A stretch of 64,000 nucleotides of DNA from Hemileia vastatrix (lineage: Eukaryota; Basidiomycota; Pucciniomycetes; Pucciniales; Zaghouaniaceae), in contig JASXTE010000005.1 of assembly GCA_030280995.1 (NCBI GenBank), positions 37,917,203 through 37,981,202 of the forward strand, written 5' to 3'. The notes under the pieces were generated by a model, which worked only from the letters and a program-made list of their open reading frames with translations, had not been told where the DNA came from and made no database searches. The position numbers were made by a program, and so were the translations under genes. Of the stretch, positions 6,675 through 57,965 are shown one piece after another. Numbering within the stretch: position 1 is the first letter of the stretch; each line of letters begins with the position of its first letter.

Positions 6675-6725
6675 TAGGGGGTGTCCGTTCTAGAAAATCT
6701 GCACTTAACTTAAGTGTGGATTTCA
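6675..6725 (+). repeat. Left terminal inverted repeat, Harbinger copy 1
   Basis: Pairs with 34466-34516 with few mismatches. It holds an internal palindrome (6699-6719, CACTTAA/CTTAAGTG) that corresponds to CCGCACTTA..TAAGTGCGG in the right end. Confidence 0.88.
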
Positions 6726-7031
6726 AACCAAATCAGCACTTAAATTTTGCAAAAAAGTCACTTATTTCAAAAATGGGTGTCAGTTCTGACCTCAAATCAG
6801 CACTTTTTTTGTGTATTTTTTTCAAAACCACATGTTGGCCACATCATCCCTTTCTTTCCCATACCATCCCTATCACATGTGATACACTGACCTTCCTCGC
6901 TACCTACCCATCAATCCTTAGCACACACCCCTTCCTGAAATTTTCAACATTTTGACCAGGCATGTTTACATTCTTATTTACTTATTTCTTCTACCTCTTA
7001 ATCTTTGTTCTTGTTATGTGCCAGTTTCATA

Positions 7032-7244
7032 ATGCCTCCCAGACATTCCAAATCTCAAAAGGTAACTCAAAAATCTGCTTTGTCACAAAAGTATCCTCGT
7101 AAAGCAAGCCCTACACCTGAAAAATCAAAGTCAGCTTCAGGTCAGCTTAAAAAGGATGATTATCTCGTCATAATAAACTTCCTTAAAATAAAATGGAATT
7201 TTGAAGCATGTTTTAGATGTGAAAAGTCCACTTGTATTGGACGT
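7032..7244 (+). pseudogene. SANT/trihelix-like gene, 5' part (copy 1), split by Gypsy-1
   Basis: Starts MPPRHSKSQK at ATG 7032, followed by a basic, serine/proline-rich leader and then the first helix of the DNA-binding domain (KKDDYLVIINFLK). The reading frame is cut at 7244, where the LTR of Gypsy-1 begins. The target site ACGT (7241-7244) recurs at 20107-20110, and joining the two sides gives an uninterrupted frame aligned with the copy at 60829-59432. The gene is therefore dead only because of a precise insertion at this point, although the 3' part has further damage. Confidence 0.82.
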
Positions 7245-8384
7245 TGTGGCATTCCAAATCTGGGTAGGCTACTTAGGTGAAAATTTGATTGGACCTTGGT
7301 TGGAAGAAAATCATGGTGTTAGCAGGTGTTAATTTGGTTGAAGGGAGTTAACTGGATTTTTTTTGGGTGGATTTATGGTGATTTTTGGAGGATTTATGGT
7401 GAATTTTTTGGAGGATTTATGGTGTTTTGGAATGGATATATGTTGGTATTCCTATTGTTATTTGATGGTTTCATGGATTGGGTATTGGTTTTACTGGATT
7501 TTCTAGGGCTCTCTTGGTATTTTTGGTGGATGCAGTGTGCTCATGGAGTAGCCATTTTTTTCCGGTGCGCTCCGGTTCGCTCCAGTGATTTTCCGGTGCA
7601 AAAGCGAAGTCACTGTGGCAAAGTTGGTCATTGTGGCAAATTTTGGTCACTGTGCCAAAAGTTTGGCTATTGTGGCAAAATTTGGTTAGAAAGTTATTAT
7701 GCTTACTAGATCATATGCATGTAGGGTATTGTTGGAAAGGTCTGGAGCAGGAGAATCATATGGGGGGAATCTTAGTCTTCTAAATGTTTTTTGCCTTTTA
7801 GTTTTCATAATAAGGGTCTTTTTTGATAATTAACAATATTTAACATATAACAACAATTATAATAAAAAAATATCAACATATAGGGTACCATTGGATAGCT
7901 CTCATCCTTGGTGAATCAAATCTATTTCTTTTCTTATAAAATTTATAAAATAAAAATATAATAAGGAACACTCTTTAATTTTGGTGGGATACTGGGTAAA
8001 TCTGGGGCAGACCTTTAATAAGGCACCTTTGAACAGATCATCCCAAGGGTAGTTTCGGGGGTACTTTATTGTACTTTTCAGTCTCTGGGGCAAGTGTTGT
8101 GGCTTGTTCTAAGTATTTTCTGTGACTTGTATCAGTGTAATCTGGTATTAGGTATTTGTTTTGGGGGTGTAATCATTTATTGCACTTATTTTTTTTATAT
8201 TATAGGTTTCCAACACTTTCAAAGTCTTTCTCTCAGATTTTCAACTTATCCAACTCCTCAAGCAGATCTTCAAGCTTAGTTAATTGAATCTTACGTTTAC
8301 TTAGAGGGACAGGGATTTCTTTTTGTTTTTCCAACTCCCTTGGATTCTGCCTGAAGCAAGGTGACTGTAGGAGTCTACTCTACA
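7245..8384 (+). repeat. Gypsy-1 5' LTR
   Basis: Starts TGTGGCATTCC and ends GTCTACTCTACA. Nearly identical to 18950-20106; the 3' copy has about 17 extra bases near 19412-19428. The translated stretch in this LTR (around 7326-7709) is a shadow, not a gene. Confidence 0.92.
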
Positions 8385-8388
8385 TTTT

Positions 8389-8405
8389 TGGCGCCCAACA
8401 TGGGG
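8389..8405 (+). other. Gypsy-1 primer-binding site
   Basis: TGGCGCCCAACATGGGG lies four bases after the 5' LTR. It begins with TGG, as expected for pairing with the CCA end of a tRNA. I cannot name the tRNA without the genome's tRNA set. Confidence 0.7.
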
Positions 8406-8552
8406 TTCAAATTCTCTAGCTTCTGAAGAAACTTACTTGTTGGACTTCTGGATTTTGGTTTTCTGGTTGTTGGATTTTGATTGGTTGGTTATTTAGTGAT
8501 TCTGGTAACTGGCTGAAACAGTACAGGATCTGTGGTAGTAGGGATCTAGGTA

Positions 8553-8667
8553 TAGGGCTGAACCCTTGCTAGATCTGTTGTTTTTGTTTTTGTTTGTTGT
8601 TTTATCCTAGTAAAGGGCTGAACCCTTGTAGGATATTGTTGGTTGTCTGGTAAAGGGCTGAACCCTT
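8553..8667 (+). repeat. Three leader hairpins in Gypsy-1
   Basis: AGGGCTGAACCCT occurs at about 8554, 8614 and 8654. Each can form an AAGGG/CCCTT (or AGGG/CCCT) stem with a CTGAA loop. They lie between the primer-binding site and the gag start, where packaging or dimerisation signals of retroelement RNA are usually found. Function is inferred. Confidence 0.55.
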
Positions 8668-8699
8668 GCAGATTTTATTGGTTTCTGGTGCTATTTGGG

Positions 8700-10499
8700 A
8701 TGTCTTCTCCATCTGGTGCTGGTGTTATTTCTGCTGCTGCTGATGGTGTCAGGCCTTCAGTAAGGATTCAAACTTGGGATGGGCCCAAGTTTGTTGGTGA
8801 TGATGTAAATTGGTTTTTGGGCAGATATGAGGCTTCTGCTGGAATTGATGGGGCTTCTCATTTAGATATGGTGAAGCAGGTAATCTTTTTCATTGGTGAT
8901 AGGGAATTTGAGAAGGAGATTACTGGTATGGAGGGTTATAAGACTAGGGATTAGAAAAGGCTTAGTAGGGAAATGGTGGACAGATGGGGAGTCAGATATT
9001 CAATGGTGGATTTAAATAAGGTTGTTGGAGAATGGCAAGTGCAGGGTGGAATAACTTCTTTGGTGAGTTATAGGAAATTTGTTGGTAGTTTTGAAACTGT
9101 GGTGGAATATCTGGTGGAGGTAGAGGAATTGGCTCATGAAAATGCAGTCAAAGATTTATTTTGGTCCGCTTTTGGGAGGGATGTTAGGATGGATGTGTTA
9201 AAGGAGTTGTCTAGGAAGGGTTTGATGAAAACCTTACCTAATGAGGAACAGAAGTTGCTTGCACTTAAGGTGGTTAAAGAATAGGTGGAGTCTCACCTCA
9301 AGCTTTTGGCTGTGGACAGTTATCAAGAAACCTGTACACAGTATGTTAGCAAAATTAATGAAGTTTTGGCTGATAATAACGGTATTATGAAGAAGGCTCA
9401 GGAGGCAAGAAAAGCTCAGTTGGGGAAACCAGTTCCTAAGGTGGATAAGAATGTGGATAAGGAGATGGTGGATCAATTGGCTGACTTAACGAAGCAATTG
9501 AAAATTTTTGTTCAAGAAACTCAGAAGGCCAGCAGGGTTTCAGCTTCTTCTTCATCATCTTATTTAAGTAGAGGTTATGATAGGAGGAATGGTGGTACTG
9601 TTGATGTTTGGATTTGTTCCTACTGTAACTGGAAGAGACATAAGTCTAATAATTGTTGGAGTTTGAATAGGTATCAGGCTGCTGGTAGAGTAAAATTTGA
9701 TGGAAAGGTATTTAGGTTTTCTGATGGATCTTTTATCAAGCCCAGTGAAGGTCTGGCTCCTTCTGATTTGGTGAGGAGGAATAGTATGGGTGAAAAGAGA
9801 GCTAGGTTTGAGGAATTGCCTACTGAGGCTTCTTCTGGTACTTGAAATAATTCTGGAGATAAGGGGAAGGAAAAAGAGGTTAGTAAGGCTACTTTTTCTA
9901 CTTCATATGGTAATTTGGAGTTATTAAAGGTTGTTAAGGTGGATGGTGAGTGTATGGCTGGTTTATATGATGTGGAGGCTGCTAGGAGGGTGGCTGCTTC
10001 TAAATCTAGAAGCATTATTTCTAATCAGTTAATGTCAAAAGGTGGAAAGGCAGATTCTAAGAAGGCTGAAGATCCCAAGAAGATTTATACGCCTGAAGAG
10101 ATTTGTCAGATGCAGAAGGGGATAGCTGATATGGGTCCCCCTAGTTTTGGTGCTTTTGATCTTAATGGTGATCTTATGCCTTTGGGTGATGGTTCAGATA
10201 CAGAGGAGGATGTGCCTTTGGCTTCTTTGCCTAGGACAAGTTCTAGTGGGCCAATGGAGGGAGTTAGAACTACTGTTGATGGTTCTGGTTTGGTCTCTGT
10301 TGATGGAAACGTTCATGGGGATAATTGTGATGTGGAGATGTGTGATGTTGATAATGTGGGACCTCAGGAGTCTTCTAGTGCAAAGGTTGCTAGGAGTAAG
10401 GCTCATTATGAGAGGCCAGTGGTTTCTGGTCAAGAGAATGCTATGGATATTGTTTTTGGGAAGGGTGAATCAGCTTCAGATTCCATTATCTTTGGGTGA
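8700..10499 (+). pseudogene. Gypsy-1 gag (nucleocapsid precursor), broken
   Basis: Chosen start is ATG 8700 (MSSPSGAG), in the frame used throughout. Stops at 8953, 9282 and 9843 break an otherwise continuous frame of about 600 codons. A capsid-like helical region (about 8760-9500) is followed by a CCHC zinc knuckle (CSYCNWKRHKSNNC, about 9615-9660; CX2CX4HX4C), which binds RNA in the particle. The tail is acidic and low in complexity. The stops replace codons that look like W, Q and R in context, so this is decay and not programmed readthrough at three places. Protease continues in the +1 frame, so the gag-protease junction would need a frameshift. Confidence 0.8.
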
Positions 10500-11070
10500 A
10501 TTGCTCACTATTAGTCCAGCCCTTGCTGAAAAGAAGAAGAAGCATTTGACTAGGAGAAGAGTGGCTACTGGTGAGGTGGAGTATATGTGTGAAAATGTGG
10601 AGAAGTTTGGTAATGAGGTGGAGACTCATTTTTCTGCTCCTTTGGGATATTTGGTGGTTTCTTTAAATCGCAAAGATGTGAAGGCATTGGTTGATTCAGG
10701 CTCACAAATAAATTTAATTTCATTGGATCAATCAACTAGTCTGGATTCGCTAATTAAAGCTGGTGTTGGAGGAAATCTCAGAGGGATAGGTGGGCATGCT
10801 ACTGAGTTGATTGGTACAGCGGAGCATGTAAAGTTAGGTGTAGTTGGAGCTGTTGGAAAATTTCATTTTTATGTGGCTAGAGGAGCTGTGAAGACAGTTT
10901 TAGGAGGGACATTTTTGATGTATTTTGAGGCCAAGATTGGTTATCAGTCTGGTGTTGGGATTAGTTTGGAGATTACTGGGGAGGATATGAGGCGGTTACA
11001 TATGAGGTTGGCACCCCCAGGTGATGAAGGTTGGGAAACTAGGCCTGGTGTTTCTGCATCTTGTCAGTGA
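10450..11070 (+). pseudogene. Gypsy-1 aspartic protease region
   Basis: In the +1 frame relative to gag. The retropepsin-like motif ALVDSGSQINLIS (about 10684-10722) has the catalytic D-S-G triad, followed by a GIGGHATELIGTAEHVKLGV flap-like region. It would cut the Gag-Pol polyprotein. The frame ends at 11070, after which only fragments are open until the RT region; a MITE and an LTR-like insert lie in between. Confidence 0.75.
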
Positions 11071-11394
11071 TGCACTTGCACTAGGAAGAGAAAAAAATTG
11101 AAGTCCTCTTCTGGTGTATTTGAGGATAGTGGTGATCATTTTGTTGGTGACCCTTCTTTTTTAGGGTAGATAGGGCTGATCAGTCTAGTGCTGTAATCTC
11201 TCTTCAAGAAGAAATCCCGGATTGCAGTAGTTCAGCTCAAGTGGAGATATATCAAGTGGAATCTCAACTTTTTGTAGATAATATTACTTTATTATGTCAA
11301 TTTTCTTCAAATTATTTGTCTGGTTTCAGATTTTCTTCAAGTTTTTCTCTCAAGTTTATTTCAAGTTTTGAAGATGTTTTAGGGAAAATTTTGT

Positions 11395-11640
11395 TGGAGA
11401 GGAAAAGTTTTGGAGTGGTGGCAAATGGGTCTAAAATTAAGTCCCCCCAATTGTGCACCACTAGGGTTTCTTCTACACCTTTCAAAAACATTACCATGGC
11501 CACACATGTGAGCATTGGAGACACCCCTGGTTGTTTTTCTAGATATAGCAAGAAACCATTAGACAAAAATCAAGAAAAAAATCTCAAGATAACTGAAAAT
11601 CAGAAAAAAAAAATTTATGTAAAGATGTTGTCAGTAGGAA
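11395..11640 (+). repeat. Internal duplication in Gypsy-1 (unit A)
   Basis: Almost identical to 13545-13760 (unit B) in the same element. Both encode a GSK(I/S)KS..LCT(T/A)RVSS stretch and a THVSIGDTPGCFSR stretch. In unit B the frame is open; in A it runs into the MITE-bearing segment. The duplication makes the protease-RT spacer unusually long. Confidence 0.8.
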
Positions 11641-11723
11641 GGAGCCTACTTGGTTTACTGGTGGCCTCCAGCATGAGTATAAACTGCACAATAACTCTCA
11701 ACTAATGTCTCATTCTTATTTCT

Positions 11724-11984
11724 CACCACGCAATATGGGGGGCGGACTTGTTAGCAAGTCCGCAACCTTGGACTCAAGTTCACCACAGATTGAACACACA
11801 TTGAGCTATTGACAAAGGAACCATACAATCAGGGATAAACACCACTCAGCAGAACAGTTTTAGGTGTGTCTTCAAGTAGAGTTCAATATGAGTTCAGTAT
11901 GAGTTCAGTCTGAGTTCCATCTGAGTTGTGCCTGAGTTCAGGTTGGGGACTTGCTAGCAAGTCCACCCCCTATATTGCGTAGTG
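11724..11984. mobile_element. CACTA-like MITE with palindromic TIRs
   Basis: 261 bp, bounded by CACCACGCAATAT and the complement of CACTACGCAATAT, flanked by TCT at 11721-11723 and 11985-11987. The TIRs are about 40 bp; each carries an 18-bp (near-)palindrome of the type GGACTTGCTAGCAAGTCC. The interior right side has tandem TGAGTTC motifs (11880-11945). The CACTA/CACCA ends with a 3-bp duplication fit the CACTA (EnSpm) superfamily. No protein is encoded, so it must move with enzymes from elsewhere. Confidence 0.82.
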
Positions 11985-12147
11985 TCTCTCAAGAAAAATT
12001 GAAAATGCAAATAAATTGTCTGAATAATGAAAAGCAAGAAAAGGTGTTTGTTGATTTGGGTTCTGTGATGTGTGGTGATGATTTGGTTGGTGGTTTTTTT
12101 GGCAACACTGGTGTGTCTGTTTCAGCCAGGCTATCTCAGGAGTCCAG

Positions 12148-13328
12148 TAATTTATACAATAAATTACTGCAATCATATAAAGGAATAACATTATGTAATT
12201 ACAAAAAATAATTAAAATAAAATTATAAACATTTTATGAATAAATAAAATAATTACTATACTTAATTTTATTATTAAATAAATTTTATTACATAAACAAA
12301 TATAATATTCTATAATATCATGGTGTACTTTGTATGTATAAATAAATTATTTAAAATTATTTTATAAGGATAAATTTAACTTACACTGTAATTATAATTT
12401 CAATAATAAAATTTATATAAACTAAATACATATGATCATATAATACTATCCATAAATATTGGGCGCTTCCTTGATCCTTAATTGTGTCACTAAAATTACT
12501 AAATTAATTAAAAAAATTTATTTAATATGATTAAATTTAATTTCTCATGTTAAATAAGTTTCTTTATTAAATTAATTAATTGTTTCAATTAATTTAATAA
12601 TTAAACTACCTGGAATAGTTAAAATAATTAAATTACTTTTACTTATACTGAATGAAGATTATTTAAAAGCGTAAAAAGAATTCCTTTTATTTTAATTACA
12701 CTTTTTTAGCTATTTTTATTCCCTCTTTAGATTTCTCTCTCATAGTTCTCATTTTCCATATTCACGTAGTTATTTGTTATATCAATTCTTTTCTTTTTTA
12801 GAAATATCTGATGGGAAAAAATATCTGCTTAATCACGGGTTTATTTTTATTGTTTTTGATTAAATTTTTTAATTATTTCTTTCACATTATTTTACCTTTT
12901 TGTAATTACTATTGGATCGCTCCAGAAGATCCTCTTGCCTATAAAAGGGGTTTGGAAATCTCTCTGGTAGCTCATTACTTATTATACACTCACTTAAACA
13001 TATTTTTGAATATACTACTTTTATTTATTATTTTTATTAGTTCTACATATCTAATTTAAATAATATATAAATAATTATAGGTTGCTTTAAGTTTAATAAT
13101 ACTATCAGTGTTTTCCGCGCTTTTGAACATAAGTACAAATATACATATATTATAATTTAAATCAAAACTTATAGTTGCACTAAGTCTCAAGTCCTCTCTT
13201 CCTCTCTTCTCAAAATACAAATATTATATTATTATTATACATCTTTATAATATTTTATATTTTTCCTCCTACTTTCACTTTTCCATCTTCTCCTCCTCCT
13301 TCTTCTAGACAACTGGCTGATAGTCTGT
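12148..13328 (+). mobile_element. AT-rich LTR-like insertion in Gypsy-1
   Basis: 1181 bp flanked by the direct repeat GTCCAG (12142-12147 and 13329-13334). Removing it joins two open frames of Gypsy-1 in phase, so the boundaries are good. A TATAAAAGGGG box (12940) with a downstream pyrimidine-rich stretch suggests an LTR promoter, hence a solo LTR. The ends (TAAT..GTCTGT) are not a clean TG..CA, so another class of non-coding element is possible. Confidence 0.65.
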
Positions 13329-16296
13329 GTCCAGTTGCAGAAGAGAGTTTCTCCAGCATGAGGATAAAAGGCATGACTTTCTAGCTTCTGGTGGGGCGGT
13401 CACTGCAGTGCAGGACCTATCTGAAGGTAACATGGACAGTCTCTGTGATGAGAATCCTGAACCTTATGATGATGTTTATTGCCCTAGGGGCATTTTTGAT
13501 TTGGTTGGTGATTTTGGTACTAGTGAAGTGGATGAGCAGAATTTAGTATGGAAAAGTTTTGGAGTGGTGGAAAATGGGTCTAAAAGTAAGTCCTCCCAAT
13601 TGTGCACCGCTAGGGTTTCTTCTACACCTTTCAAAAACATTACCATGGCCACACATGTGAGCATTGGGGACACCCCTGGTTGTTTTTCTAGGAATAGCAA
13701 GAAACAATTGGACGAAAATCAAGAAAAAAATCTCAAGATAAATGATAATCAACAAAAAAATTATTTATGTAAAGATATTGTCAATAGGGCTGAGCCTACT
13801 TGGCATGCTGGTAATCTCCTGCATGAGGATAGACTGCGAACTTTTCATACTTTTGATTATTCTTTTCTTATTTCTAAAAATATAAATCAAATTAAAAATT
13901 GTCTGCATAATGAAAAACTAGATAACAATATTTTTGAAAATTCCAATAATTCTGTTTCTAAAGACTTTAATAATTCTTTTTCAAAAAATAAAAATAAAAA
14001 TAAAACTGATAAAATTTATTTATCTGATTTTAAAAATTCTTTTTGTAAATATTCTGTTACTCTTAATTCTGATGAAGATGAAGATTCTGTTGATGAAAGG
14101 AGCTCAATTCCTCAAGTACATGTGGAAGTGGAAGCGGCAAAATATAAGAAGGTTGCTGTAAAAGTTAAACCAATCAATGAAGCGCTTCCAACTGGATTGA
14201 ATCCGCCGTTCAAGAGACCATTTTTGTCAAGAGATCCATATGAAACTCCTTTAAGAAAGAATCCGCCTGAATTTTCTGAAACGTCAAAAATTATTTTTGA
14301 TAGGATTGGTGTTGTAAATTTTGGGCCAGAGGGTTGGTTATCTGGTGAGGAGATGAATTTGTTGTTGGATGTGATGGTGTTGAGGGAGAAGGCTATTGCA
14401 TTTGTGGAAGAAGAGAGGGGTGTTTTAAAGCATTCTTATGGTGAACCTTACAAGATTCAAGTTGTTTGTCATGAACCTTGGCAACTCAAGCCAATTCCGA
14501 TTCCTGCTGCTCTTAAAGATGATTATATTGAAGCTGTTAGTGAAAGGATTAGGACTGGACTTTATGAACAATCGTTATCAATTTATTCAAGTCCAGTTTT
14601 CTGTATCAAGAAGCCTAATGGAAAGCTTAGAGTGGTTCATGGTCTCAGGGAATTGAATAGGGTGACTATAAAAGATGCTGGTATTCCTCAAAGTGCAGAG
14701 GAATTTGTTGATGCTTTTTCTGGAAGTGTATGTTATGGCTTGGGTGATATTATGGGGGGCTATGATGAAAGAGAATTACATCCGGATTCAAGACCTCTGA
14801 CAACTTTTGATACTCCTCTTGGATGGTTACAGCTGACTAGATTACCTAAAGGTGCTACTAATTCTGTTGCTGTTTATCAAGCACAAATGGCTTGGATTCT
14901 TCAAGATGAAATTCCACAGTATGCTGGTGTATTTATTGATGATGGTGGAATTAAAGGTCCTTCAACTGATTATGATAATGAAGTGTTGGAGGAGAATCTA
15001 GGTATTAGGAGGTTTATTTGGGAGTATGCAGTAACTTTGGAAAGGATGTTGTTTAGGATTGAAGAAGCTGGTTTAACTATTTCTGGTTCTAATTTTTCTT
15101 GTTGTGTTCCAGCTTTAGAGATTATTGGACATGTGGTGTGTAGAGAAGGCTGAATTATGTCAAAGAAGAAAGTCAAGAAAATTCAATCTTGGCCGAGACC
15201 TAGAAACACTACTGAAGTTAGAGGATTTTTGGGAGTATGTGTTTATGTTATGATGTTTATTAGGGATTTCTCATTATTGGCTGCTCCATTGAGAAGGTTA
15301 ACTAGGAAGGATGCTGATTGGGATTGGGATGAAGCTTGTGAAGAAGTTTTCATTAAGTTGAAGAAGGTGGTTGGTGAAGATATTATTCTTCATAAGTTGG
15401 ATTATGGTGAAGGAGCTGGTAGGATTTATTTAGCTGTTGATTCTAGTCAGCTGGCTGCTGGTGCAGTGCTTTCTCAGATGGATAAGGGTGGTTACATTAG
15501 ACCAGTTAGGTATGAATCTGTATTTTTTACTGAGGTGGAATCAAGATATTCACAACCAAAGTTGGAACTCTGTGGTGTGGCAAAAATTTTAAAGAAACTT
15601 CAAAATATCTTATGGGGTCAACATTTTTAACTTCAAGTGGATGCTAAATCTTTAATTCAGATGATTAATTCACCTAGTTTACCTAATGCTCCAATGACTA
15701 GGTGGGTAGCTTTTATTCAACATTTTTCATTCGATTTAGTGCAAAGGCCTGGAAAATCTTTCACTATGCCTGATGGATTGTCAAGAAGACCACCTACAGT
15801 AGATGATTCCAATTCAGAAGAGTTTGATGAAGATATACCTATAATCAAGGCCAGTACCAAGGGTGCTGAGGACTTTCCATACCTCCCCCATGAGGTTAAA
15901 CTGGCTGGTTCTATTTTTGTTGAATTTGATGAAGTTGATGATCTAGTTGATCATGAGGTTTTTGTAGATGAGGATGGTGTGGTTGTTTGGGATAATTGGA
16001 AGTTGGTTAATGGTGTTTATGTTTGTTATCTGAAGAAGGATAGTGGTAGCATGGAAAAATGTTTGTATGAGGTGGATTATGTGGATTTCAGCAAACAGCG
16101 GAATGCTCAGAGAATGATTGCTCATTCACAAGTGGGAGATATTGGGGACAGGGAGGTTCCTTTGGATGTTATATTATTGGATTTTTCTGATGAAATTCGG
16201 GGCCAGACTGGGTTTTATTTTTTAATGGTGAAATATTTGTTGTCTCTGGGAAAACCAGAAGAATGTGATGAAGCTGAATGGGTGGCTATCAAATAG
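13329..16296 (+). pseudogene. Gypsy-1 pol: reverse transcriptase and RNase H
   Basis: A long frame to 15153 holds an N-terminal spacer (13329-14400) and RT. Seen are SPVFCIKKPNGKLRVVHGLR (14592-14651), the substrate-binding block TFDTPLGWLQLTRLPKGATN (14806-14865) and the catalytic FIDD (about 14931-14942, the YxDD box), so the catalytic aspartates are present. After a TGA at 15151 the thumb region and RNase H follow (YLAVDSSQLAAGAVLSQM about 15427-15480; KLELCGVAKIL; RPGKSFTMPDGLSRRP near 15745-15795), broken again by a stop at 15628. Together these copy the RNA into DNA and remove the template. Stops at 15151, 15628 and 16294 mark decay. Confidence 0.87.
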
Positions 16297-16314
16297 AAGT
16301 CATCCGGTTTTTAT

Positions 16315-21209: not shown

Positions 21210-21479
21210 TAAATTGTTTTTTTAGTTAATTTAATTTTGTTTGATTTATTTTTGGTAATATTTTCTTATATGCTGACTTATAAAAGGTCTTGAATATAGT
21301 ACATTATTTTTGACAAATTTTTGAAAATATCATACAATTTTTCTATCTTTACATTCAAGTCAATTAGTTTGCTTATACTTTTATTTTGATGAAAATTTGA
21401 AAATATGATAAAAATTTTCTATCTTTACTTTCAAGTCAATAAGTTTGCTTATCTAAATACTTCTAAGTCAATAAAATTC

Positions 21480-21735: not shown

Positions 21736-21844
21736 AATTTAATATAATTACATAAATTAATTAATATATAAATAAGATATGTCAAATCTACTACTTTTAA
21801 ATTAATGACAATTCCTCATCCCAAAATGCAGATCAAGTCTAGAA

Positions 21845-25066: not shown

Positions 25067-25143
25067 GTATAATTTAATTCTCCATAGTTCTCATTCTTTG
25101 CAGTACTAAGTCCCTTTTCAGGTGTTTTCTCTAAATCCTCAAA

Positions 25144-26297
25144 ATGGCACCTGTTCAACGCACTCCTCCTACAGGCGCTACTACTAGAGCTCGCGCCAGA
25201 GGCAGGCCAACAGCCACACGGCCTGTGTCCTCCACTCACTCCTTGGAGCCACTCGACCTTAGGGAACGGAAACATTCAGTCCAATCTGTAGAAGACATCC
25301 CACAAGATTTTGATGATTCTAGTGATGATGAAGAAGGAGAGGATACAATGCACAAGGCACCATCTGCCCCTGCTAACCACCCTTCTGGTCACCCTTCAGA
25401 GCCTGGACCATCTAATACTCTGGAAGATTTCATGAGACTTTCATGAAGACTCTTTCAACTTCAACATCTTCAGAGGGATCTAAATTCAAAACTCCCTCTA
25501 TGAAATCTCCTGATAAATTCTATGGAGAACATCCAGACAGATTGCGGCCCTTCTTGAAAACCTGCAAGCTCCTGTTCCATAATGACCCTCAAACCTTCAA
25601 TAACGACCGATCAAAGGTTGTTTATGCTTCTTCATTTCTGGCCGGAAAAGCAGCAAGATGGTTCGAACCTTATCTTCTCATGCTCTCTTCAACCAAAACC
25701 CATTTACTTATTAATAATTGGGAAAAGTTCGAAGACCAACTCTTCACGTTGTTTGGTGACCCTAATGAAACTGACAAAGCAGAAATTGAACTTGATTTTC
25801 TTTGCATGAGTGATAATGGTAAAGCCTCTGAATATATCTCGAACTTCAGAGCGCTTCAAACTCGAGTAGGTTGGAATGATGCTGCTCTCAAGTATCATTT
25901 CAAAAAGGGACTTCCTTCGAGGATTCTGGATCAATTAAATCTTCATGGTCAGAAAATGACTACTTTAACGGATTTAATGGATCAAACCCTCGAACTTGAC
26001 GGCGTTTACCAAGGACAACTGAAACTTTGTTGATACGCCAACAAATCTCAAGGCCTAAATTTTAAGTCAGGACCTTCTTCTCACCCACAAAAAACTCAAT
26101 CCCCCTCGACTAAATCCAAACCCAACAAGGGAAAGGACAAGCCTCGACCGAAAAGCTCAACCCCAGGTGATATCAGCAAAGTACTGGATCCTAAAGGGGA
26201 ACTTAAAGAGGCTGAGAAGAAGAGGCGAGCAGATAATGGGTTATGTATGTATTGTGGGGGTAAGCACAAGCTGGAAGATTGTGTAAAATTGAAGTAA
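25144..26297 (+). pseudogene. Gypsy-2 gag
   Basis: A 100-residue N-terminal frame (25144-25446, MAPVQRTPPTGATTRARARG, basic then acidic) overlaps by ATGA with the main gag frame beginning at 25443 (-1 frame). The main frame has the typical Retrotrans_gag core (YGEHPDRLRPFLKTCKLLF, SFLAGKAARWFEPYL, NWEKFEDQLFTLFGDPNE). A TGA at 26031 precedes a basic linker and a zinc knuckle CMYCGGKHKLEDC (26246-26284). A TAA ends the frame at 26297. Gag forms the particle shell and binds RNA. The ATGA overlap may be a small indel or a genuine stop-start arrangement. Confidence 0.8.
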
Positions 26298-26319
26298 AGA
26301 GAAGGTACTAGTTTGAAGT

Positions 26320-26385
26320 CAAAAAACTAGTAGATAGTTTACTTGTGTGCAAAGAAAACTAGTAGATAGTTTACTTGTGTGAAAA
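26320..26385 (+). repeat. Short tandem duplication in Gypsy-2
   Basis: AACTAGTAGATAGTTTACTT is present twice, about 30 bases apart, between the gag zinc knuckle and the protease. It adds to the frame disruption there. Confidence 0.7.
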
Positions 26386-26454
26386 GCAAACTATTTTATC
26401 TCTCCCAGCGCACAGAACCTCCATGTCTTAAGGACTGGAGTTGCCTTAAACCAC

Positions 26455-29400
26455 TTGAGATTCATTCTTTTTAAGGAGGATACCCCTTTCAGTTGTCTTA
26501 TAGACTCTGGAGCTTCAATTTCTTTTGTCAGTTTATCTTTTTCAGAGAAGTTACAGCTGACATTTACAGATATCGATCAAACTCCAATTTACTTGGTCAA
26601 ATCAGAGGAACCCAGATATTGGGTCAGTAAGAAAGTTTTATGGGTTTTCAACTTTCCGAATTTCCCCCCCTTCGAGTGGGAATTATCAGTCTTGGAAACC
26701 CGATTGATGGACGATACCATTCTTGGCCATGACTTTTTAACACATTGGAATCCTGAAATTGATTGGAAAAGGGGATTGATCACCCCACGGACTAAGTATA
26801 TTTCTTATTCTTCAATGCATGTCAATAGGGACCTAAACAACCCGCCTGACAATGTCCTGCTAGAGGACAAATCTCTGCCAGATGACTTGCAAGCATCTGA
26901 TCTTTCTTTAAATGAGCAATTGGCTAACCCTTCTAGCTCGATGACTTCACTCAAAGAGGATTTAAATTGCCTCAAAGTAATCAAATTATGCTCTCTCAAT
27001 TCTGGTCTTCCCTCAACAGATTCTCTCGAAGATGATGAGGACAACCAAATCGACGTTGAAGCCATTAAATTGACTCTACCAGAAATCTATCATGATTTCC
27101 TCGATGTTTTTTCAATTTGCAAGGCCAATAAGTTACCACCTCATCAACCCTACGACCATCAGATAGAGTTAATAGGTCCAGTACCTCCAGCAGGTCCTGT
27201 CTATTCCTTGTCAAAGGACGAATCTTAAGTTCTTTGAGACTACATTGCAGAGAATGTAGCCAAAGGTTTCATCAGAGCCAGTAAATCTCCAACCAGCTCC
27301 CCTGTCCTCTTTGTAAAAAATAAGGATGGTAGTCTTAGGTTGTGTGTTGACTATAGAAAGCTCAACACAGTCACTAAGAAGAATGCATATCCTGTTCCTC
27401 CTATGTCATTGCTTCTTACCCTTTTTAGTGGTGCTAATTTCTTTTCTAAAATTGATCTTAGAGGCGCTTACAATCTTATTTGCATTGCGGAAGGTCATGA
27501 ACCACTGACTGAAATGCGCACTAGATTTGGTAGTTTTGAATATTTAGTTATGCCTTTTGGATTATGTAACGCACCATCTACTTTTCAAACTTTTGTTAAT
27601 GACATCTTTCAAGATGTTGTTGAACAATTTGTTGTCGTCTACTTAGAAAATATTTTAATTTTCTCAAAGAAACTAGATGAACATATTCATCATGTTTGAC
27701 AGGTTCTAAATCCCCTTTGAGATCACGGTCTCTACGCCAAGCACAATAAATGCAAATTCCATCTCAAATCTATTGATTTTTTGGGGCTTATGTTGTCCAC
27801 TGATGGTTTAGTCATGGACGACAAAAAGGTCCAAAAAGTCCTGGAATGGCCTGAGCCCAAAACCATTAAATCCCTCCAGGGATTTTTGGTTTTTGCAAAT
27901 TTCTATAGAATATTTATTAAAAATTACTCTAAAACTATTTCCAATCTTACTTCTCTTCTTAGAAAAGATATTCCTTTTGTTTTTACTTCCACAGAACAAA
28001 AGGAATTTGAAGCATTGAAGACGGCGTTCACCACAGCTCCAATTCTTCGACACTTTGATCCTTCTGCTTTGACAATAGTCAAGACGGATGTGAGCGATTA
28101 TGCTATTGCAGGGGTCATTTCTCAATTGAATCCGGAAACAAAACTGTTTCATCCTGTTGCTTTTGAGTCACGCAAACTCATTGCAGCAGAATTAAATTAT
28201 GAAATTCATGACAAAGAGCTTTTAGCTATTATTCATTCTCTTAAAAAATGGTGCTCTTTTCTTCTCAGCTTAGATAGTCCTTTTCAAATTTTAACAGACC
28301 ATAATTCTTTGAAATACTTTATGTCTTCCAAAGTGTTAACCAGGCGTCAAGCCAGGTGGGCTGAATTTCTGTCTGAATTTCATTTTTCTATTTCCTATCT
28401 CCCAGGTAAGAACTGCATTGTCCCAGATATCTTGTCACGTTGGGCCAACGTTTACCCACAGCAGGGGGGCGCATTTGCTGACAAAAAACCAGCAAATGTG
28501 AAATCAATATTCAACGAATCAATGTTAACGACTCAACAAGTTAATTCAATGACAATTCTATCGTTTCAAAATCCACTATTCAACATCCTCAAAGCTCAGT
28601 CAAAGGACAATTATTGTTTAGGGTTAAAAGACAAAATACTCTCGAAGCAAGGGGCCAAAAGATTTAGTATTGAATAAGGTCTATTAGTCTTCGAAGGTAG
28701 AGTAGTCATACCCAACAACAATGAGATAAAATTATGGATTTTCAATAGTCAACATGATTCTCCATTAGCTGGTCATTTTGGGGTTGATAAAACCTACCAG
28801 TTAATAGCGAGGGATTTCTTCTGGCCAGGTATGACCAGGGAAATCAAGGCCTATATAAAAGCTTGTTACAAATGTAATAGGAATAAGGCTCCCTGTCACC
28901 AGAAGTATGGGTTGCTTCAACCACTTCCTATTTTCTCTAAACCTTGGGAATCTTTATTGATGGATTTTATTTCTCAACTTCCTCTTTCTAATAATTTTGA
29001 TGCTATATTAGTAATAGTAGATAGACTTTCAAAAATGTCTATTTTTATTAAAACCACTACTACTGCTACAGCAGAAGATTTGTCAAAATTGTTTCTAGAA
29101 TATGTATTTTCCAAACATGGCTTACCTAATGATATTATTTCAGATAGAGGCTCATTGTTTGTATCCACATTCTGGACTCAACTGTGTCGACAACTCAATA
29201 TCACGAGGAACCTCTCCACAGCCTATCACCCTGAAACCGATGGGCAAACAGAAAGGGTCAACCAAATCCTCAAACAATACCTTTGAATGTATGTCAGTTA
29301 CCAACAAGACGATTGGACCACATGGTTACCATTGGCCGAATTTGCTTATAATAACTCGACTCATTCTTCAACACAACAATCTCCTTTTGAAACTGTTTAT

Positions 29401-30009
29401 GGAAGACATCCTCAATTCAATTCAATCCATGTAGGAACTAATCATCCTGCGGGACATTATCTTCGAACCATATCACGACTCCAAGTGGAACTTAAATCAA
29501 ATTTGGAATTAGCGGTTTGAAGGTACAAGGAACAGGCCGACAAACATCGACAAACTGCTCCTTCTTTTAAACCAGGCAACAAGGTATGGCTTGACACACA
29601 AAATATTTGAACTACTCGACCATCAAAGAAACTTGTTGAAAAACGCTTGGGGCCATTCAAAATTGACTCTGAAGTCTCTAAAACTGCATTTTGACTCAAG
29701 CTACCTCCTAAATGGCAGGCTATTCACCCTGTTTTTCATGTATCTCTCCTGGAACGGGCTCGAGAAACATACCCGGGCAAGAACCAACCTCCTCCGGAAC
29801 CGGTTGAAGTAGAAGACCATCTAGAGTGGGAAGTAAGCCGTATCCTTGATTCAAGAATGCGCAAGGGGAAACTTCAATACCTTGTGGAATGGGAAGGCTT
29901 CCTCGATGACTCAGACAAAACATCCTGGGAACCAGCCATCAATGTTTCTAACGCCCCTGAACTCCTAAAATCTTTTCATCTTAAATATCCTTTAAAACCA
30001 AAACCTTAA
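26455..30009 (+). pseudogene. Gypsy-2 pol: protease, RT, RNase H, integrase, chromodomain
   Basis: Protease: CLIDSGASISFVS (about 26494-26532). [22 protein letters not shown] (27322-27381), [13 protein letters not shown] and [20 protein letters not shown] (27526-27585). The catalytic box reads [11 protein letters not shown], so both aspartates of YxDD are gone. RNase H: TDVSDYAIAGVISQL (28084-28128), DKELLAIIHSL and DHNSLKYF. Integrase: GHFGVDKTYQLI with CYKCNRNK for zinc, then MDFISQLP, IISDRGSLFVSTFW and HPETDGQTERVNQ, all catalytic residues kept. Chromodomain about 29830-29990 (WEVSRILDSR, YLVEWEGF, SWEP), which would steer integration to marked chromatin. Stops: TGA at 27235, 27697, 27718, 29284, 29518, 29608 and 29692; TAA at 27226 and 28675. 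Confidence 0.9.
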
Positions 30010-30731
30010 AACTCTCTTTTTTTTTTCTTCTTTCTTTCTTCTCTGTTCTTTTTTTCTTTTAAAATCTAAAACATCTTTACTTCTAAAAAATTCTTTTGTT
30101 TTCTTCTTTATTCTTTTTCTTTTTAAAATTTTTCAACTTTCTTTTAAAAAATAAATTAAATTAAATTAAAATAAAATAAAAATTAAATTAAATTAAAATA
30201 AACTAAAATTAAATTAAAATAAAATAAAATAAAACCAAATTAAAATAAAATAAAATAAAACAAATAAAAATAAGAAAATTTTCTTCTCAATTTTCTATAT
30301 ACATTCTTTCTTTAAAATTTTCTTTTCCTCGAACTATCAAAATTCTTCACAAACATTACACGACCATCTTTTTCGAACTTCACTTTAACTTCTAAATCAC
30401 TCTTTTAAATTCTTTGAAACAAATTACTTTTTTCTTTCAAAATCCTCTTAAAATTTTTATTTCTTCTTTTCCTTTTCTTTCTTTTCTTTTTTCAAATAAC
30501 TAAAATCCCTCAAATCTTCAATTAACAAACTTAAATAACAAATTTTTTTCTTTTCATTAAATTTTCTTTACAACAAATTTTTTCAATCAACTATTTTTTT
30601 CTCTTCTTCTTCTTTCTTCTCTCATTCAAATCTTATAAAAATAAATATTAAAATTCTAAATAAAATAACAAAATGAAATAACTAAATACAAATTGTTTCT
30701 ACATTCCTTTTTCTTCTTTTCTCTTTTCATT
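30010..30731 (+). other. Low-complexity spacer of Gypsy-2
   Basis: T- and C-rich runs, then a simple A/T array of AAATTAAAATAAAAT type at 30150-30270. No gene. It separates pol from the antisense gene. Confidence 0.7.
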
Positions 30732-31709
30732 TTAAATTTTCTCTTTTATCTTCTCCCAAACCAATCCCTTCATCTTCTCCAAAATTTCCCTTATCTCCTT
30801 TCTATATTTTTCAAAATTCTCCCCCTCTCCTACCGGAATCAATTCCCCAAGTTCAAGTAGCTCCTTGGCTATGTCGAAGGAAGCGGCATCAACAATTTTA
30901 TTGATCTCGCTGCTCAAGTCTTCAATAAATTTTGCTCGTCGAACCTGACGAGGCTTCTTCGACCATACTTGATTGAGGGTTTCTTCGTTTTCCTCCCTCA
31001 AGGTAACAGTCGGTAACCTATCCTCCACCGACACTGCCACTTCCACAGCAGTGGGTTCCACAAGGGTTGCTTCCACCGTAGGGACTTCGATGATGACATC
31101 TGAATTCTAAAACAGGATCATCAGTAATTAAATTTATGAATTATAAAAAAGTGAACTTACTTTGAAGATTGGGTCAGCCTCCAAAAATAATATAGGAGTG
31201 ACCTTCTCTGCCACCTCCCTCTCCTCTTGGTCATCTTCAATGACCACCCGTTGTTTTTTCGGGGTTTTCCTCGAGATGGGAATTTCTTCTTTCTCGTTGA
31301 CCAATTTGTCGACTTCCTCTTTGACGGCCCGCCTCTTGCTTGCATCCCTAGTCACCCAGGTTGTCACATCATCCTCAACTTCCTCCTCATTCTCCCCCAC
31401 CGATTGATTGTCCCCAATGGACACATCCCAAATTTCCTCAACTACTTCCTTCGTTTTGGGGATCACCCAATACTTCGTCTTAGTAAACCGACTCTCAATG
31501 TTGGCATTCTTTGCTAAGGCGTCACACGCCACCCTTTTCCATCGGCAAAACTCGCACTTCTGGTGAGGCCCTCGTGTCGCCGTGCTCTCCATGCAAAAAT
31601 ACTCCATTGACTCGCAGGCCGTGAAAGTCTTCAAAAATTGTTGTGTAACAACACCCCCATCCGCTTTAGGGTGTGGAGGCGTGGGAGTCGGTGTAGGAAA
31701 TTCCGTCAT
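30732..31709 (-). CDS. Spliced antisense gene carried by Gypsy-2, unknown function
   Basis: Exon 1 runs from ATG 31709 to 31161 and exon 2 from 31106 to the stop at 30732. The 54-base intron has GTAAGT..TTTTAG ends and is in phase, giving about 307 residues with no internal stop. The N-terminus is proline-rich. CEFCRWKRVAC (around residue 53) has the CX2CX6C spacing of half a Zn2Cys6 cluster, with other cysteines just upstream. The middle is acidic and then basic (RKTPKKQRVV), followed by a helical, charged C-terminus (EINKIVDAASFDIAKELLEL). I do not recognise the family. It lies antisense between pol and the 3' LTR and is intact while pol is ruined. A nuclear or nucleic-acid-binding role is inference from composition only. 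Confidence 0.68.
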
Positions 31710-31819
31710 AGTGAGTTAAAAAAAATAATAATAATAATAATTAAATAAAGAGGAAGGAAAATTAGTGTGAGAAATATGTCTTACGCTCAACGGAGCTCGC
31801 ATTCTTATACCCGGGCATC

Positions 31820-32622
31820 TGTCATGCGCCACGTGACACTCGAGGCAAAAGCAGCTCATTAAATCAATAATAAGGGGCTCAAATCCATACTCGAAGCGCA
31901 GAAATCAATTCTCCATAGCAACTGCAACTTTCCTTTGTGTACTCGCTATTCAACCGCGCTAGTCTAAACTCTAAATCTAAATTAGTCAATTTCTCAATAG
32001 TGTGTCTTAGTCTTTTTCTCAATAAGCAACGCACAGCGCAATAATAAATATAATAGTACATTAAAAGGTTTATGAAATGTCTGTGGGTTATTAAGGGGTA
32101 GTGAGCATGGACGGAATGGTTAGTGAAGGATTAAGGGGTTAACGGATGTTAGTGAGGAGGGTCAAGGTGTAATGGATATATTTTAAATGGTTTGTGGTGT
32201 GCGGAATAGTGGATGGGTATGAGGTCAATGCGAGGAGGAGTAAAGGATATAAAAAGGGTTGGGTTTTTGGTTCGATATTCCTTAGAATTAAATTATAAAA
32301 CGTATTTATAGTTAATAGTGGTAAAACTCTAAAGTGAAAATCATTATTATTGTATCTTTCTTTCATTTCTCAATAATCACTTCTAAATCCTAAATCTTGA
32401 TTGTTGAGTTTCCAACCCTTTGTGAGATTGTAACAATTTTAATATTACCTTTCAAACTATATGAAGATTCTTCTCGAACATATCTCAAAGCAGTAGATCT
32501 TCCTTCAAGTCATCTTTGAATCACTTCCTCAAACCATCGCTCTGTGCTTCGAAGAAGTATCTAAACCTTTCATCTCACTTGCAGGAACATCCTCGACCTT
32601 GTGCGTAGGTCGTCCGGTGACA
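31820..32622 (+). repeat. Gypsy-2 3' LTR
   Basis: Starts TGTCATGCGCCACGTG, ends GTCGTCCGGTGACA. Small substitutions against the 5' LTR, several of them C/T or G/A. Confidence 0.92.
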
Positions 32623-32922
32623 AAACCCAAAAAACCAAAAAAAAATAATTAGCAAAAAATTAAGTAAAAAAGATAAAATGACTTACCTGGAGAGATGAGT
32701 TGAGAAAAAAGAAATATAAGTGAAATTGTTTGAGTGATGTAGGAAGAGAGGAGAAAACGGATATGAGTGAAGAAAAAAAAGAGAGTGACTGAAAAAATAT
32801 GTGTTTGCTGAAAATATGCAATTTCATGTTGAGTTGATGAAAGAAAACACAGAGAGATAAAAAAAAAAGACTTTAACAGCAAATTCAAAAACCAAAAAAA
32901 TATGCAAAAAAATTTACCATTC

Positions 32923-34242
32923 TCAGTGAATAAGACATGCAAATTGATCATTTGAAGAGAATGAAAAAAAAATAAAATAAAATTGCGTTGAAAAATGTTG
33001 GAGTGTTATTGGGAGAATTTTTGCCCTTATACTAGTTGATTGAGAAATAAAAGTGTTAGATATAGTTGGAGGTGAATCAACTTGTTCATCTTCATACAGC
33101 TCTAACCATTGATCTTTGAGGTTAGCAAGTAGGTTATGAAGTATAGTGCAACACAGAATCCAGTTGATCACCGCCTCCATTTCAGATTTATTTCTAAGAG
33201 GACTTCTTAATTCCCTTAAACTAGAAAAATGGCCTTTCAAGATTCCAATAGAATGTTCAATACGGACTCTTGACTTTACCAAATGATTGTTGAACTTGGA
33301 ATTTTGACTGTCTTCTGAAGCTGCTCCCCAAAAAGCAGCAAGTACATGCTTTCCATTCGCATAAGCAGAATCTGCAAGAAGATACTGATCTTCATCAAAG
33401 AATTTTTCAGGTTCATTTGAAATTTGCATTCTTTGGAAGACGTAGGAGTCATGACATGAGCCAGGATAGCCAGCAAAGAATGATATAAATTTTTTGTTTA
33501 CGTCACATATAAGCTGAACTGAAATTGAATATCTATAAAGAAGATATGTTTGTTTGTGTTAGTTTCAAAGAGAATGAAAGGTGTTAAAAATAATCTACCT
33601 CTTTTTACGGTCAAAGTAATTGTTTCCACCTTGAGCAGGTTTCTGGCTCAAAGGAATAGCAGTACCATCAACAAAACCAATACATCCTGGGAAGCCCTCT
33701 GCTTGCATAACCTGAGATTATTCAAGTCGCTCTTCTTTTGTTGGCCAGGTGAGAAGTTGAGATTCTAAGGAGTTGATGGCAGTGATAAATTGTTTGGTAT
33801 AAGTGTTAACTGAACCATACCCTAAATCAAAGACATTTTCTAAACGTTTCAAAGCAGCTCCATTACCATTTGAACCCAAATGACATAGTGTGATGGCCAA
33901 TTGAATTGAAGGATGTTGTTGTTCTTTTTGAGAATTATTGTGAAATATAGTATGATCCTGAATAAGCTCAAGAAATTTAAGGAAAAATTCCTGAGAAGTT
34001 CTGAACAGCTGTCTAAATCTGGGTGTAGATAGGTTAAGAAGTGTTTGGATGGTGTACTTGGGGGTATGAAGTACTTGAGGCTTTCTGGGAAGAAGGTAAC
34101 TTTTCGTGGCCATTTTTTATAAAAAGACAAAATCTTTTTCTAGATCAGAATCAAAATCGGAATCAGAGTCCAAGAGCAGTTCAAGAGCCATGAAAGTCAT
34201 TGCTTTATGTAATTTATCTCGATTTGAAAGTGAGGAAGGCAT
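32923..34242 (-). pseudogene. PIF/Harbinger DDE_4 transposase (copy 1), nearly complete
   Basis: Start MPSSLSNRDKLHKAM at ATG 34242. A TAA at 34119-34117 interrupts the N-terminal region. An HTH-like segment follows (QLAITLCHLGSNGNGAALKR, then FDLGYGSVNTYTKQFI), then a second TAA near 33720. The catalytic core is complete: GFVDGTAIPLSQKP (first D, about 33690-33645), LLADSAYANGKHV (second D, about 33372-33334) and VRIEHSIGILKGHF (the E, about 33271-33230). A GT..AG intron (about 33598-33536) splits the core after NYFDRKK. The enzyme cuts and pastes the element at 3-bp targets. Only two nonsense codons separate it from an open frame, so it died recently relative to the other copies. Confidence 0.87.
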
Positions 34243-34465
34243 AACTCTTATATGATATGATATGAAGATGTAAATGATGTATGATGTTTTGAGTTATGAA
34301 GTGTTATGCTGCGGAGTGCTGCATATGAGTGGGATGATGCTGACAAATCAGTGAAATGGGACTTGATGGTGAAATCAGCACTTTTGGTTGAGAAAGTGCG
34401 GATTTGAGTGAAATAAGTGACTTTTTTCACTTTTGAAATCCACCAGTATTGGGGCTAGTGTGTTT

Positions 34466-34516
34466 TGGAAATCCGCACTTAGATAAGTGCGGATTTTCCA
34501 GAACTGACACCCCCTA
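34466..34516 (-). repeat. Right terminal inverted repeat, Harbinger copy 1
   Basis: Complement of 6675-6725. It carries the perfect hairpin CCGCACTTAGATAAGTGCGG at 34473-34492. ATT follows at 34517-34519. Confidence 0.88.
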
Positions 34517-36466: not shown

Positions 36467-36507
<41 letters not shown>

Positions 36508-57957: not shown

Positions 57958-57965
57958 TATATTCG

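What the first reader, a model, noticed from the sequence alone, without database searches (positions are those of the whole stretch)
6675..34516. Harbinger transposon family that carries a TET/JBP-like dioxygenase gene
Two full copies (6675-34516 and 55678-61180), bounded by matching TIRs and 3-bp ATT duplications, hold the same three genes in the same relative order: SANT/coiled-coil, then convergent TET-like oxygenase and DDE_4 transposase. Classical PIF/Harbinger elements have two genes. Fungal TET genes have been reported with KDZ transposons, but this transposase has the GFVDGT, LLADSAY and RIEHSIGILKGHF blocks of the Harbinger DDE_4 type. A transposon with its own candidate 5mC oxidase could undo silencing of its DNA. 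I cannot tell whether this pairing is already described.
Basis: partly seen in the sequence, partly recalled or inferred. Interest (0 to 1): 0.88.

Follow-up and report, generated by a model that had tools for sequence, protein, structure and literature searches.

The report
Rust-fungus transposon carrying a TET-like gene
A very numerous jumping gene in a large rust-fungus genome carries, besides its own transposase, a gene like the animal TET enzymes that remove DNA methylation; the pairing was published in 2025, but this family differs in how it inserts and has split into parts that seem to depend on each other.

Summary
Two elements with AGGGGG...CCCCCT termini and ATT duplications carry a DDE_Tnp_4 transposase, a Tet-like oxygenase (PF20515, E 6.6e-30) and a third, weakly Myb/SANT-like protein. 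Neither is intact. Copy 1 is split by two LTR retrotransposons and has in-frame stops. Copy 2 has lost the transposase's catalytic part, yet two other genome copies match it at 99% over 5.5 kb.

The pairing is not new. Kojima 2025 (PMC12730594) describes TET+ Harbinger ('PHISTA') in Puccinia and Austropuccinia. This family departs from that description: two empty sites show a 3-bp ATT duplication for copy 2, not TA (17 of 19 TIR pairs agree), and the third protein weakly resembles Myb/SANT.

In the 748-Mb genome all 10 sampled oxygenase loci lie beside other genes of this element. The oxygenase is as constrained between two families as the transposase (dN/dS 0.13 against 0.12-0.17). Trees indicate oxygenase cassettes moved between families. 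Transposase-only and oxygenase-plus-third-gene deletion forms both occur in near-identical copies.

Best reading: an element-encoded 5mC (or other base) oxidase acting in trans against silencing. The chemistry is inferred. CpG depletion is no weaker in oxygenase-carrying copies, which argues against protection of a copy's own DNA.

The parts
6676..34515 (-). Copy 1 (family F1): Harbinger-type element, own length 6611 bp, with two LTR retrotransposons nested inside; genes degraded
   Evidence: TIRs; boundaries and length; homology to copy 2
6673..6675 (.). left target duplication ATT of copy 1
34516..34518 (.). right target duplication ATT of copy 1
7033..7244 (+). third gene of copy 1, first part (split by the LTR element; the joined flanks read open)
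   Evidence: ORF
7245..20106 (+). LTR retrotransposon nested in copy 1 (TSD ACGT; LTR pair 97.0% identical over 1147 aligned bases)
   Evidence: RVT_1 and rve matches just under their cut-offs
20107..20377 (+). third gene of copy 1, Myb/SANT-like part (PF13837 E 7e-4, below cut-off)
22023..23030 (-). Tet-like oxygenase of copy 1, in three pieces separated by in-frame stops; HxD changed to HxN
24265..32622 (.). LTR retrotransposon nested in copy 1 (TSD AAACC; LTR pair 96.9% identical over 803 aligned bases)
32923..33558 (-). copy 1 transposase, ORF with second D and E (PF13359 E 2.4e-23)
33597..34116 (-). copy 1 transposase, upstream part with first D (GFVDGT); carries an in-frame stop
55678..61180 (+). 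Copy 2 (family F2): 5.5-kb deletion derivative, TSD ATT at 55675-55677 and 61181-61183; 98.9 and 99.0% identical over its whole length to two other genome copies
56058..56690 (+). copy 2 transposase N part with first D; catalytic D2 and E absent
57927..58583 (+). copy 2 Tet-like oxygenase ORF (218 aa, PF20515 positions 46-211, E 6.6e-30), HxD present
59432..60829 (-). copy 2 third gene: Myb/SANT-like N part and charged repeat C part; an in-frame stop lies between two adjoining ORFs
1750..4022 (-). Copy 3, partial F2-like element with the third gene and one TIR
51007..61503 (+). Copia element into which copy 2 inserted (TSD GGAAC; the 176 bases shared by its LTRs are identical)

Best explanation
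These are members of a very numerous PIF/Harbinger-type DNA transposon group of a rust fungus whose complete elements encode three proteins: a DDE transposase, a Tet-like Fe(II)/2-oxoglutarate oxygenase, and a Myb/SANT-like protein with a charged C part. The transposase, with the Myb/SANT-like protein as likely DNA-binding partner, cuts and pastes anything with AGGGGG...CCCCCT ends into a 3-bp AWT target. The oxygenase is kept by selection at the level of the transposing lineages and most likely oxidises 5-methylcytosine on silenced element DNA. It works as a shared product acting in trans, so that copies without it (transposase-only) and copies without a working transposase (oxygenase plus third gene) can both spread. 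Shown: gene content, termini, 3-bp duplication, purifying selection between families, linkage of sampled oxygenases to the element, near-identical copies of both defective forms. Inferred: the substrate, the trans action and the anti-silencing role.
For: Families: PF13359 and PF20515; of 40 transposase hits the 12 that name an organism are all Puccinia. TSD: 17 of 19 TIR pairs match as AAT (9) or ATT (8). The empty target of copy 2 was found twice, both with a single ATT, and none with three extra bases. Linkage: of 10 PF20515 places taken at about every 15th of the 150 scored, 9 have the transposase upstream on the same strand and 7 show the convergent third gene; the one without transposase (L032) has the third gene. 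On contig C2, 28 of 53 F2 oxygenase matches have the F2 transposase 24-mer upstream on the same strand within 6 kb, against 0 with the strand reversed and a mean of 0.46 (maximum 4) for random places. Selection: F1 v F2 dN/dS medians are oxygenase 0.13 (36 of 36 pairs), transposase 0.12 (24 of 36) and 0.17 (30 of 36), third gene 0.18 (24 of 36); a shifted frame gives 0.93-1.50. Spread in defective form: copy 2 is 98.9 and 99.0% identical to L036 and L035 and sits in a copia element with identical LTR stretches. Six transposase-only elements are 97.6-100% identical to each other over their first 1.7 kb and match the ends of three-gene element E_C631 at 95-97%.
Against: No activity, expression or methylation data. 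Against older families the oxygenase is less constrained than the transposase (F3: 0.27, 24 of 24 pairs, against 0.15 and 0.18). Within families dN/dS of oxygenase and transposase rises (medians 0.46-1.07), so most copies are probably decaying. Many have lost the metal ligand: HxN in 5 of 15 elements and in 18 of 53 F2 matches on C2. The oxygenase of the copy 2 subfamily lacks the N-terminal part, so it may not be active. CpG observed/expected is no higher in oxygenase-carrying elements (0.19-0.40, 6 elements) than in same-TIR elements without it (0.38-0.46, 8 elements), so no protection in cis is visible; age is not controlled. The AlphaFold models were unusable (mean pLDDT 44 and 38), and neither the oxygenase nor the third protein found a credible solved structure by sequence.
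Confidence: 0.6

Rival explanations
1. The oxygenase modifies bases for another purpose (hypermodification such as CMD1-type or base-J-type, 6mA, or RNA), for example marking element ends or controlling transcription, not demethylation.
For: Kojima writes that the function of the transposon-encoded oxygenases is not experimentally validated and leaves other activities open (PMC12730594). CpG depletion is not reduced in oxygenase-carrying copies.
Against: The family model is Tet-like (PF20515), and no further modifying enzyme was recognised among the element's ORFs scanned.
Confidence: 0.25
2. The oxygenase is a captured host or neighbour gene carried passively, without function for the element.
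For: Elements without it exist in near-identical copies; many copies are broken.
Against: Between-family dN/dS of 0.13 (36 of 36 pairs), as low as for the transposase; the same order and orientation in sampled loci of all four families F1-F4.
Confidence: 0.07
3. The oxygenase works only in cis or early, protecting the newly inserted copy's own expression, and the defective subfamilies are dead ends moved by chance.
For: [quoted passage not shown]
Against: A form without transposase catalytic residues that keeps the oxygenase is present in three read copies at 99% identity, and six transposase-only copies are 97.6-100% identical over 1.7 kb: each form needs the missing product in trans or does not need it.
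Confidence: 0.12

Closest known systems
PHISTA, TET+ Harbinger families of Puccinia and Austropuccinia psidii (Kojima 2025, PMC12730594; abstract, introduction, methods, results, discussion and figure legends read; not the figures or supplements)
   Same: Rust host; DDE Harbinger transposase; PU-type TET/JBP-like oxygenase inside the TIRs; a third protein; families with and without the oxygenase
   Different: PHISTA is defined by TA duplications; here copy 2's duplication is 3 bp (ATT) by empty sites. Kojima finds no Myb/SANT in the third proteins; here a weak Myb/SANT-like match recurs. Two complementary deletion forms in near-identical copies are not mentioned in the parts read
NuwaII and Pangu groups of PHIS transposons (Han et al. 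2015, PMC4482050, passages read)
   Same: DDE transposase plus Myb/SANT protein; 3-bp duplications; GG or AG termini. Pangu's 5'-ANT-3' duplication fits AAT/ATT
   Different: Two genes, no oxygenase; Kojima places PHISTA near or inside Nuwa with weak support. No PHIS-wide transposase tree was built here
KDZ (Kyakuja-Dileera-Zisupton) transposons with TET/JBP genes (reported by Iyer et al. 2014, not held here; taken from PMC12730594)
   Same: DNA transposon with a TET/JBP gene
   Different: Another transposase group, 7-8 bp duplications
CcTET of Coprinopsis cinerea and human TET2
   Same: Fe(II)/2OG oxygenase with an HxD motif; an HxTT motif like human TET2's HATTP (recalled)
   Different: No significant sequence match to any solved chain; substrate untested

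Membership tests
PIF/Harbinger-type (PHIS) transposon | DDE_Tnp_4 transposase with D, D, E | tested here: met
   PF13359 E 2.4e-23; D1 GFVDGT, D2 LLADS, E RIEHS located in copy 1; of 14 genome and window elements with the C part, 14 show E and 13 show D2, the other having no residue there. Copy 2 itself lacks D2 and E
PIF/Harbinger-type (PHIS) transposon | TIRs and 2-3 bp target duplication | tested here: met
PIF/Harbinger-type (PHIS) transposon | accompanying Myb/SANT protein | tested here: inconclusive
   PF13837 matched 3 of 4 and 3 of 4 third proteins, best E 7e-4, each time below the curated cut-off
PHISTA (Kojima 2025) | TA dinucleotide duplication | tested here: not met
   Empty sites of copy 2 with a single ATT, 2 of 2; 17 of 19 TIR pairs agree at the extra positions
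PHISTA (Kojima 2025) | third protein without Myb/SANT | tested here: inconclusive
PHISTA (Kojima 2025) | transposase clusters with Puccinia TET+ Harbinger transposases | not tested
   The organism-named hits are Puccinia, but the published sequences (Data S1) were not available
TET/JBP-like oxygenase (PU type) | PF20515 domain with HxD and distal H | tested here: met
   E 6.6e-30; HxD in 6 of 7 aligned rows, HxN in L029, and two later histidines in 7 of 7; over 15 elements HxN in 5
TET/JBP-like oxygenase (PU type) | oxidation of 5mC | not testable with these tools
   -

The most novel reading that the evidence does not exclude
A transposon community with division of labour: one class supplies transposase, another supplies the TET-like oxygenase and the DNA-binding protein. 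Both share termini and act in trans, and the oxygenase cassette is exchanged between families like a common anti-silencing tool. The enzyme's own catalytic aspartate codon lies in a CpG and is repeatedly lost by CpG-to-CpA change, as if the methylation it should undo is what kills it.
Probability: 0.3. Interest if true: 0.8.

Novelty: new variant of a known kind. Interest (0 to 1): 0.5.

Why it matters
It offers a natural experiment on transposon counter-defence: elements with the same ends, with and without the oxygenase, coexist in one genome, so methylation, expression and insertion age can be compared directly. It also questions the TA duplication used to define PHISTA, shows long-term purifying selection on a transposon-borne TET-like enzyme, and indicates that the enzyme gene moves between element families.

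Tried and rejected
TA duplication (the PHISTA rule): it fits the ends but needs an unexplained agreement at the next positions, and was rejected for copy 2 by two empty sites. Structure models of the third protein and the oxygenase: too poor to search, so no fold search was run. Solved-structure, NCBIfam and PHROGs searches for the oxygenase gave nothing credible. Protein-database searches: one hit for the oxygenase (41%) and one for the third protein (60%), both unnamed.

The idea that oxygenase copies escape CpG depletion was not supported. TCG-biased hypermutation: LTR pairs show CpG transitions (7 of 14 and 10 of 18 transitions) but too few to name a context. Iyer 2014 is not held. A Mantel test alone (r 0.74, 91 pairs, 0 of 2000 shuffles) suggested pure co-inheritance; the trees showed the exception. 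The groups tested there were chosen after seeing the distances, and L025's transposase row is 28% filled. A relaxed TIR search found only one end for E_C194 and for E_C348a, so these two enter the gene comparisons but not the duplication count. The oxygenase inside E_C348b (composite locus) and the one into which L023 inserted were left out of trees and dN/dS.
Full report
WHAT IS IN THE WINDOW. Pfam finds a Tet-like oxygenase (PF20515, E 6.6e-30) at 57927-58583, its decayed relative at 22023-23030 (E 1.4e-9 for the C-terminal piece), a DDE_Tnp_4 transposase (PF13359, E 2.4e-23) at 32923-33558, and a Myb/SANT-like hint (PF13837, E 7e-4, under the cut-off) at 20093-20377. These lie inside two TIR-bounded elements, copy 1 at 6676-34515 and copy 2 at 55678-61180, each with ATT on both sides. 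A partial third element with the third gene and one TIR ends at 4022.

COPY 1. Two LTR retrotransposons are nested in it (7245-20106, duplication ACGT; 24265-32622, duplication AAACC). Without them it is 6611 bp, and joining the flanks of the first one gives an open third-gene reading frame across the site. Its transposase and oxygenase carry in-frame stops, and the HxD of the oxygenase reads HxN.

COPY 2. The transposase has the first D; the part with the second D and the E is gone. The N-terminal part of the oxygenase has no match in it. It lies inside a copia element with duplication GGAAC whose shared LTR stretch is identical over 176 bases, so its arrival is probably recent. Two other genome copies, L035 and L036, match it at 99.0 and 98.9% over the whole 5.5 kb, same deletion included, each with its own AAT duplication. 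Copy 2 therefore belongs to a form that moved without its own catalytic transposase and kept the oxygenase and third gene.

TARGET DUPLICATION. The ends fit TA|GGGGG, the PHISTA rule, in 13 of 13 pairs printed. But in 17 of 19 TIR pairs the three bases outside an A...T terminus agree (AAT 9, ATT 8); the two misses are L018 5260-7813 and an inner pair of E_C348b that may not be true partners. The target of copy 2 occurs empty twice elsewhere in the genome, both times with one ATT, and never with the three extra bases that a TA duplication needs. The duplication of copy 2 is 3 bp.

THE GENOME. The window lies in an unnamed 747.6-Mb genome in 791 contigs. Of 40 transposase hits in the protein database, the 12 that name an organism are all Puccinia, so the host is very likely a rust fungus. 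The window's AT-richness and CpG depletion resemble what is written of Austropuccinia psidii (PMC8063080, passages), but the species is not established. First-look candidates were 7944 for PF13359 and 10849 for PF20515; only the best 150 of each were scored, and those listed are over the cut-off. Exact-pattern counts, whole for the genome with reversed-pattern controls of 0: F2 transposase-side TIR 4493, F2 oxygenase 1119, F2 transposase 1982, F1 transposase 1541, which does not tell three-gene from transposase-only elements. These count exact short matches, so diverged copies are missed.

IS THE OXYGENASE ALWAYS IN THE ELEMENT? Of ten PF20515 places taken at about every 15th of the 150 scored, nine have the DDE_4 transposase upstream on the same strand and seven show the convergent third gene in the 8 kb fetched. 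L032 has no transposase match but has the third gene; in L026, L030 and L033 no third gene was seen. On contig C2, 28 of 53 F2 oxygenase matches have the F2 transposase 24-mer upstream on the same strand within 6 kb (0 with the strand reversed; random mean 0.46, maximum 4), while 71 of 99 transposase matches have no such oxygenase match downstream. On the first 17.4 Mb of C2, 13 of 27 oxygenase matches have an exact TIR on the expected side (2 of 27 with the strand reversed; random mean 0.54, maximum 4), at distances near 2.5 (4), 3.15 (6) and 4.5 kb (3). The 2.5-kb class is copy 2's form, checked in two of the four, L035 and L036.

ELEMENTS WITHOUT THE OXYGENASE. The loci fetched around high-scoring transposases are not a random sample. 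Among them are six transposase-only elements of 2.55-4.03 kb (in L009, L010, L013, L014, L017, L018). They are 97.6-100% identical to each other over the first 1.7 kb, hold no oxygenase or third-gene match, and align to the two ends of three-gene element E_C631 at 95-97%, lacking the middle where the oxygenase and nearly all of the third-gene match lie. L015 and L023 have transposase and third gene but no oxygenase between their TIRs.

SELECTION. Between families F1 and F2 the medians of dN/dS are 0.13 for the oxygenase (36 of 36 pairs), 0.12 and 0.17 for the two transposase parts (24 and 30 of 36 pairs) and 0.18 for the third gene (24 of 36); a frame shifted by one gives 0.93-1.50. Against F3 the oxygenase stands at 0.27 (24 of 24) and the transposase at 0.15 and 0.18 (20 and 22 of 24). 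Against F4 the oxygenase is 0.20 (24 of 24), and the transposase 0.36 and 0.24 (20 and 11 of 24). Within families the medians are 0.46-1.07. The window's two copies alone give 0.17 for the oxygenase (bootstrap 0.10-0.26). Silent divergence between families is near saturation, so the exact ratios are rough. The oxygenase is thus maintained in the transposing lineages about as strictly as the transposase, and decays after insertion as the transposase does.

CASSETTE EXCHANGE. In the transposase tree L025 and L033 fall with F2 (support 100/100). In the oxygenase tree F1 and F2 group together without them (100/99), and a tree holding L025 and L033 with F2 is rejected (AU p 0.0019); for the transposase a tree holding F1 with F2 without those two is rejected (p 3e-36). 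Silent divergence F1-F2 is 1.09 for the oxygenase against 1.98-2.28 for the other genes. In the one pair of elements compared, the oxygenase region is 78% identical in DNA against 69-70% elsewhere (L024 v E_C631). The oxygenase region therefore most likely passed between the families after they split. The groups were chosen after the distances were seen, and L025's transposase row is short.

INACTIVATION. The aspartate codon of HxD lies in a CpG in both families, and in 5 of 5 elements with asparagine the change is CpG to CpA. It is seen in 5 of 15 elements and 18 of 53 F2 matches on C2. This fits loss through methylated-cytosine decay, but the methylation itself was not measured.

MECHANISM. 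Best reading: transposase plus Myb/SANT-like protein mobilise any DNA with these ends; the oxygenase removes or alters 5mC on silenced copies, supplied in trans. Against a cis-protective role, CpG observed/expected is 0.19-0.40 in six oxygenase-carrying elements and 0.38-0.46 in eight same-TIR elements without it. In the window, copies 1 and 2 stand at 0.24 and 0.36, the partial copy 3 at 0.13, the nested LTR elements at 0.18 and 0.59, and the copia element around copy 2 at 0.70. Ages are not matched.

NOVELTY. Kojima 2025 (PMC12730594; abstract, introduction, methods, results, discussion and figure legends read, not figures or supplements) already describes TET+ Harbinger families in rusts, their third protein, TET-less relatives and transfer of TET genes between superfamilies, and proposes escape from silencing. 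A term search of that text finds no 'purifying', 'synonymous' or 'CpG'. New here, as far as seen: the 3-bp duplication shown by empty sites, the Myb/SANT-like third protein, quantified selection, exchange between families within one genome, and two complementary deletion forms in near-identical copies. In the rows listed by searches (20 of 683 papers; 20 of 1039; 6 of 6; 10 of 453; 2 of 2; 8 of 140) I saw no other title or abstract start on TET-bearing Harbinger elements; most subscription papers are not held.

Noticed in passing
window 1-1378: An inverted-repeat pair (2-179/1201-1378, 84%, and 189-259/1122-1192, 89%) just left of the partial copy 3; perhaps another small element that truncates it.
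   Followed up: no
G000 contig C2, e.g. 2714544-2714993, 13381511-13381960, 16877290-16877739: Facing TIR pairs 450 bp apart (3 of 5 facing pairs under 1.5 kb), MITE-like derivatives with two transposase-side ends.
   Followed up: partly
window 58860-59320, 1750-1990, 21450-21740: Repeat units of about 90 bp with GGGG-rich cores between oxygenase and third gene, shared by all three copies.
   Followed up: no
window 36355-37632 and 39957-40700: Probable host genes: TAP42-like (PF04177, E 9e-50) and an ATP-synthase alpha/beta N domain (PF02874, E 6.5e-16).
   Followed up: no
window 51007-61503: Copia element with duplication GGAAC; its 3' LTR is longer than its 5' LTR by one 56-bp tandem unit.
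   Followed up: partly
window 23427-23990: Long C-rich then G-rich repeat (CCCCCCTCCAAA units) upstream of the copy 1 oxygenase.
   Followed up: no
E_C348b (L009+L022) 7015-10744: A TIR pair enclosing a transposase piece and an F2-like oxygenase (86.7% to copy 2); its outer bases do not match, so it may be a composite or two nested elements.
   Followed up: partly
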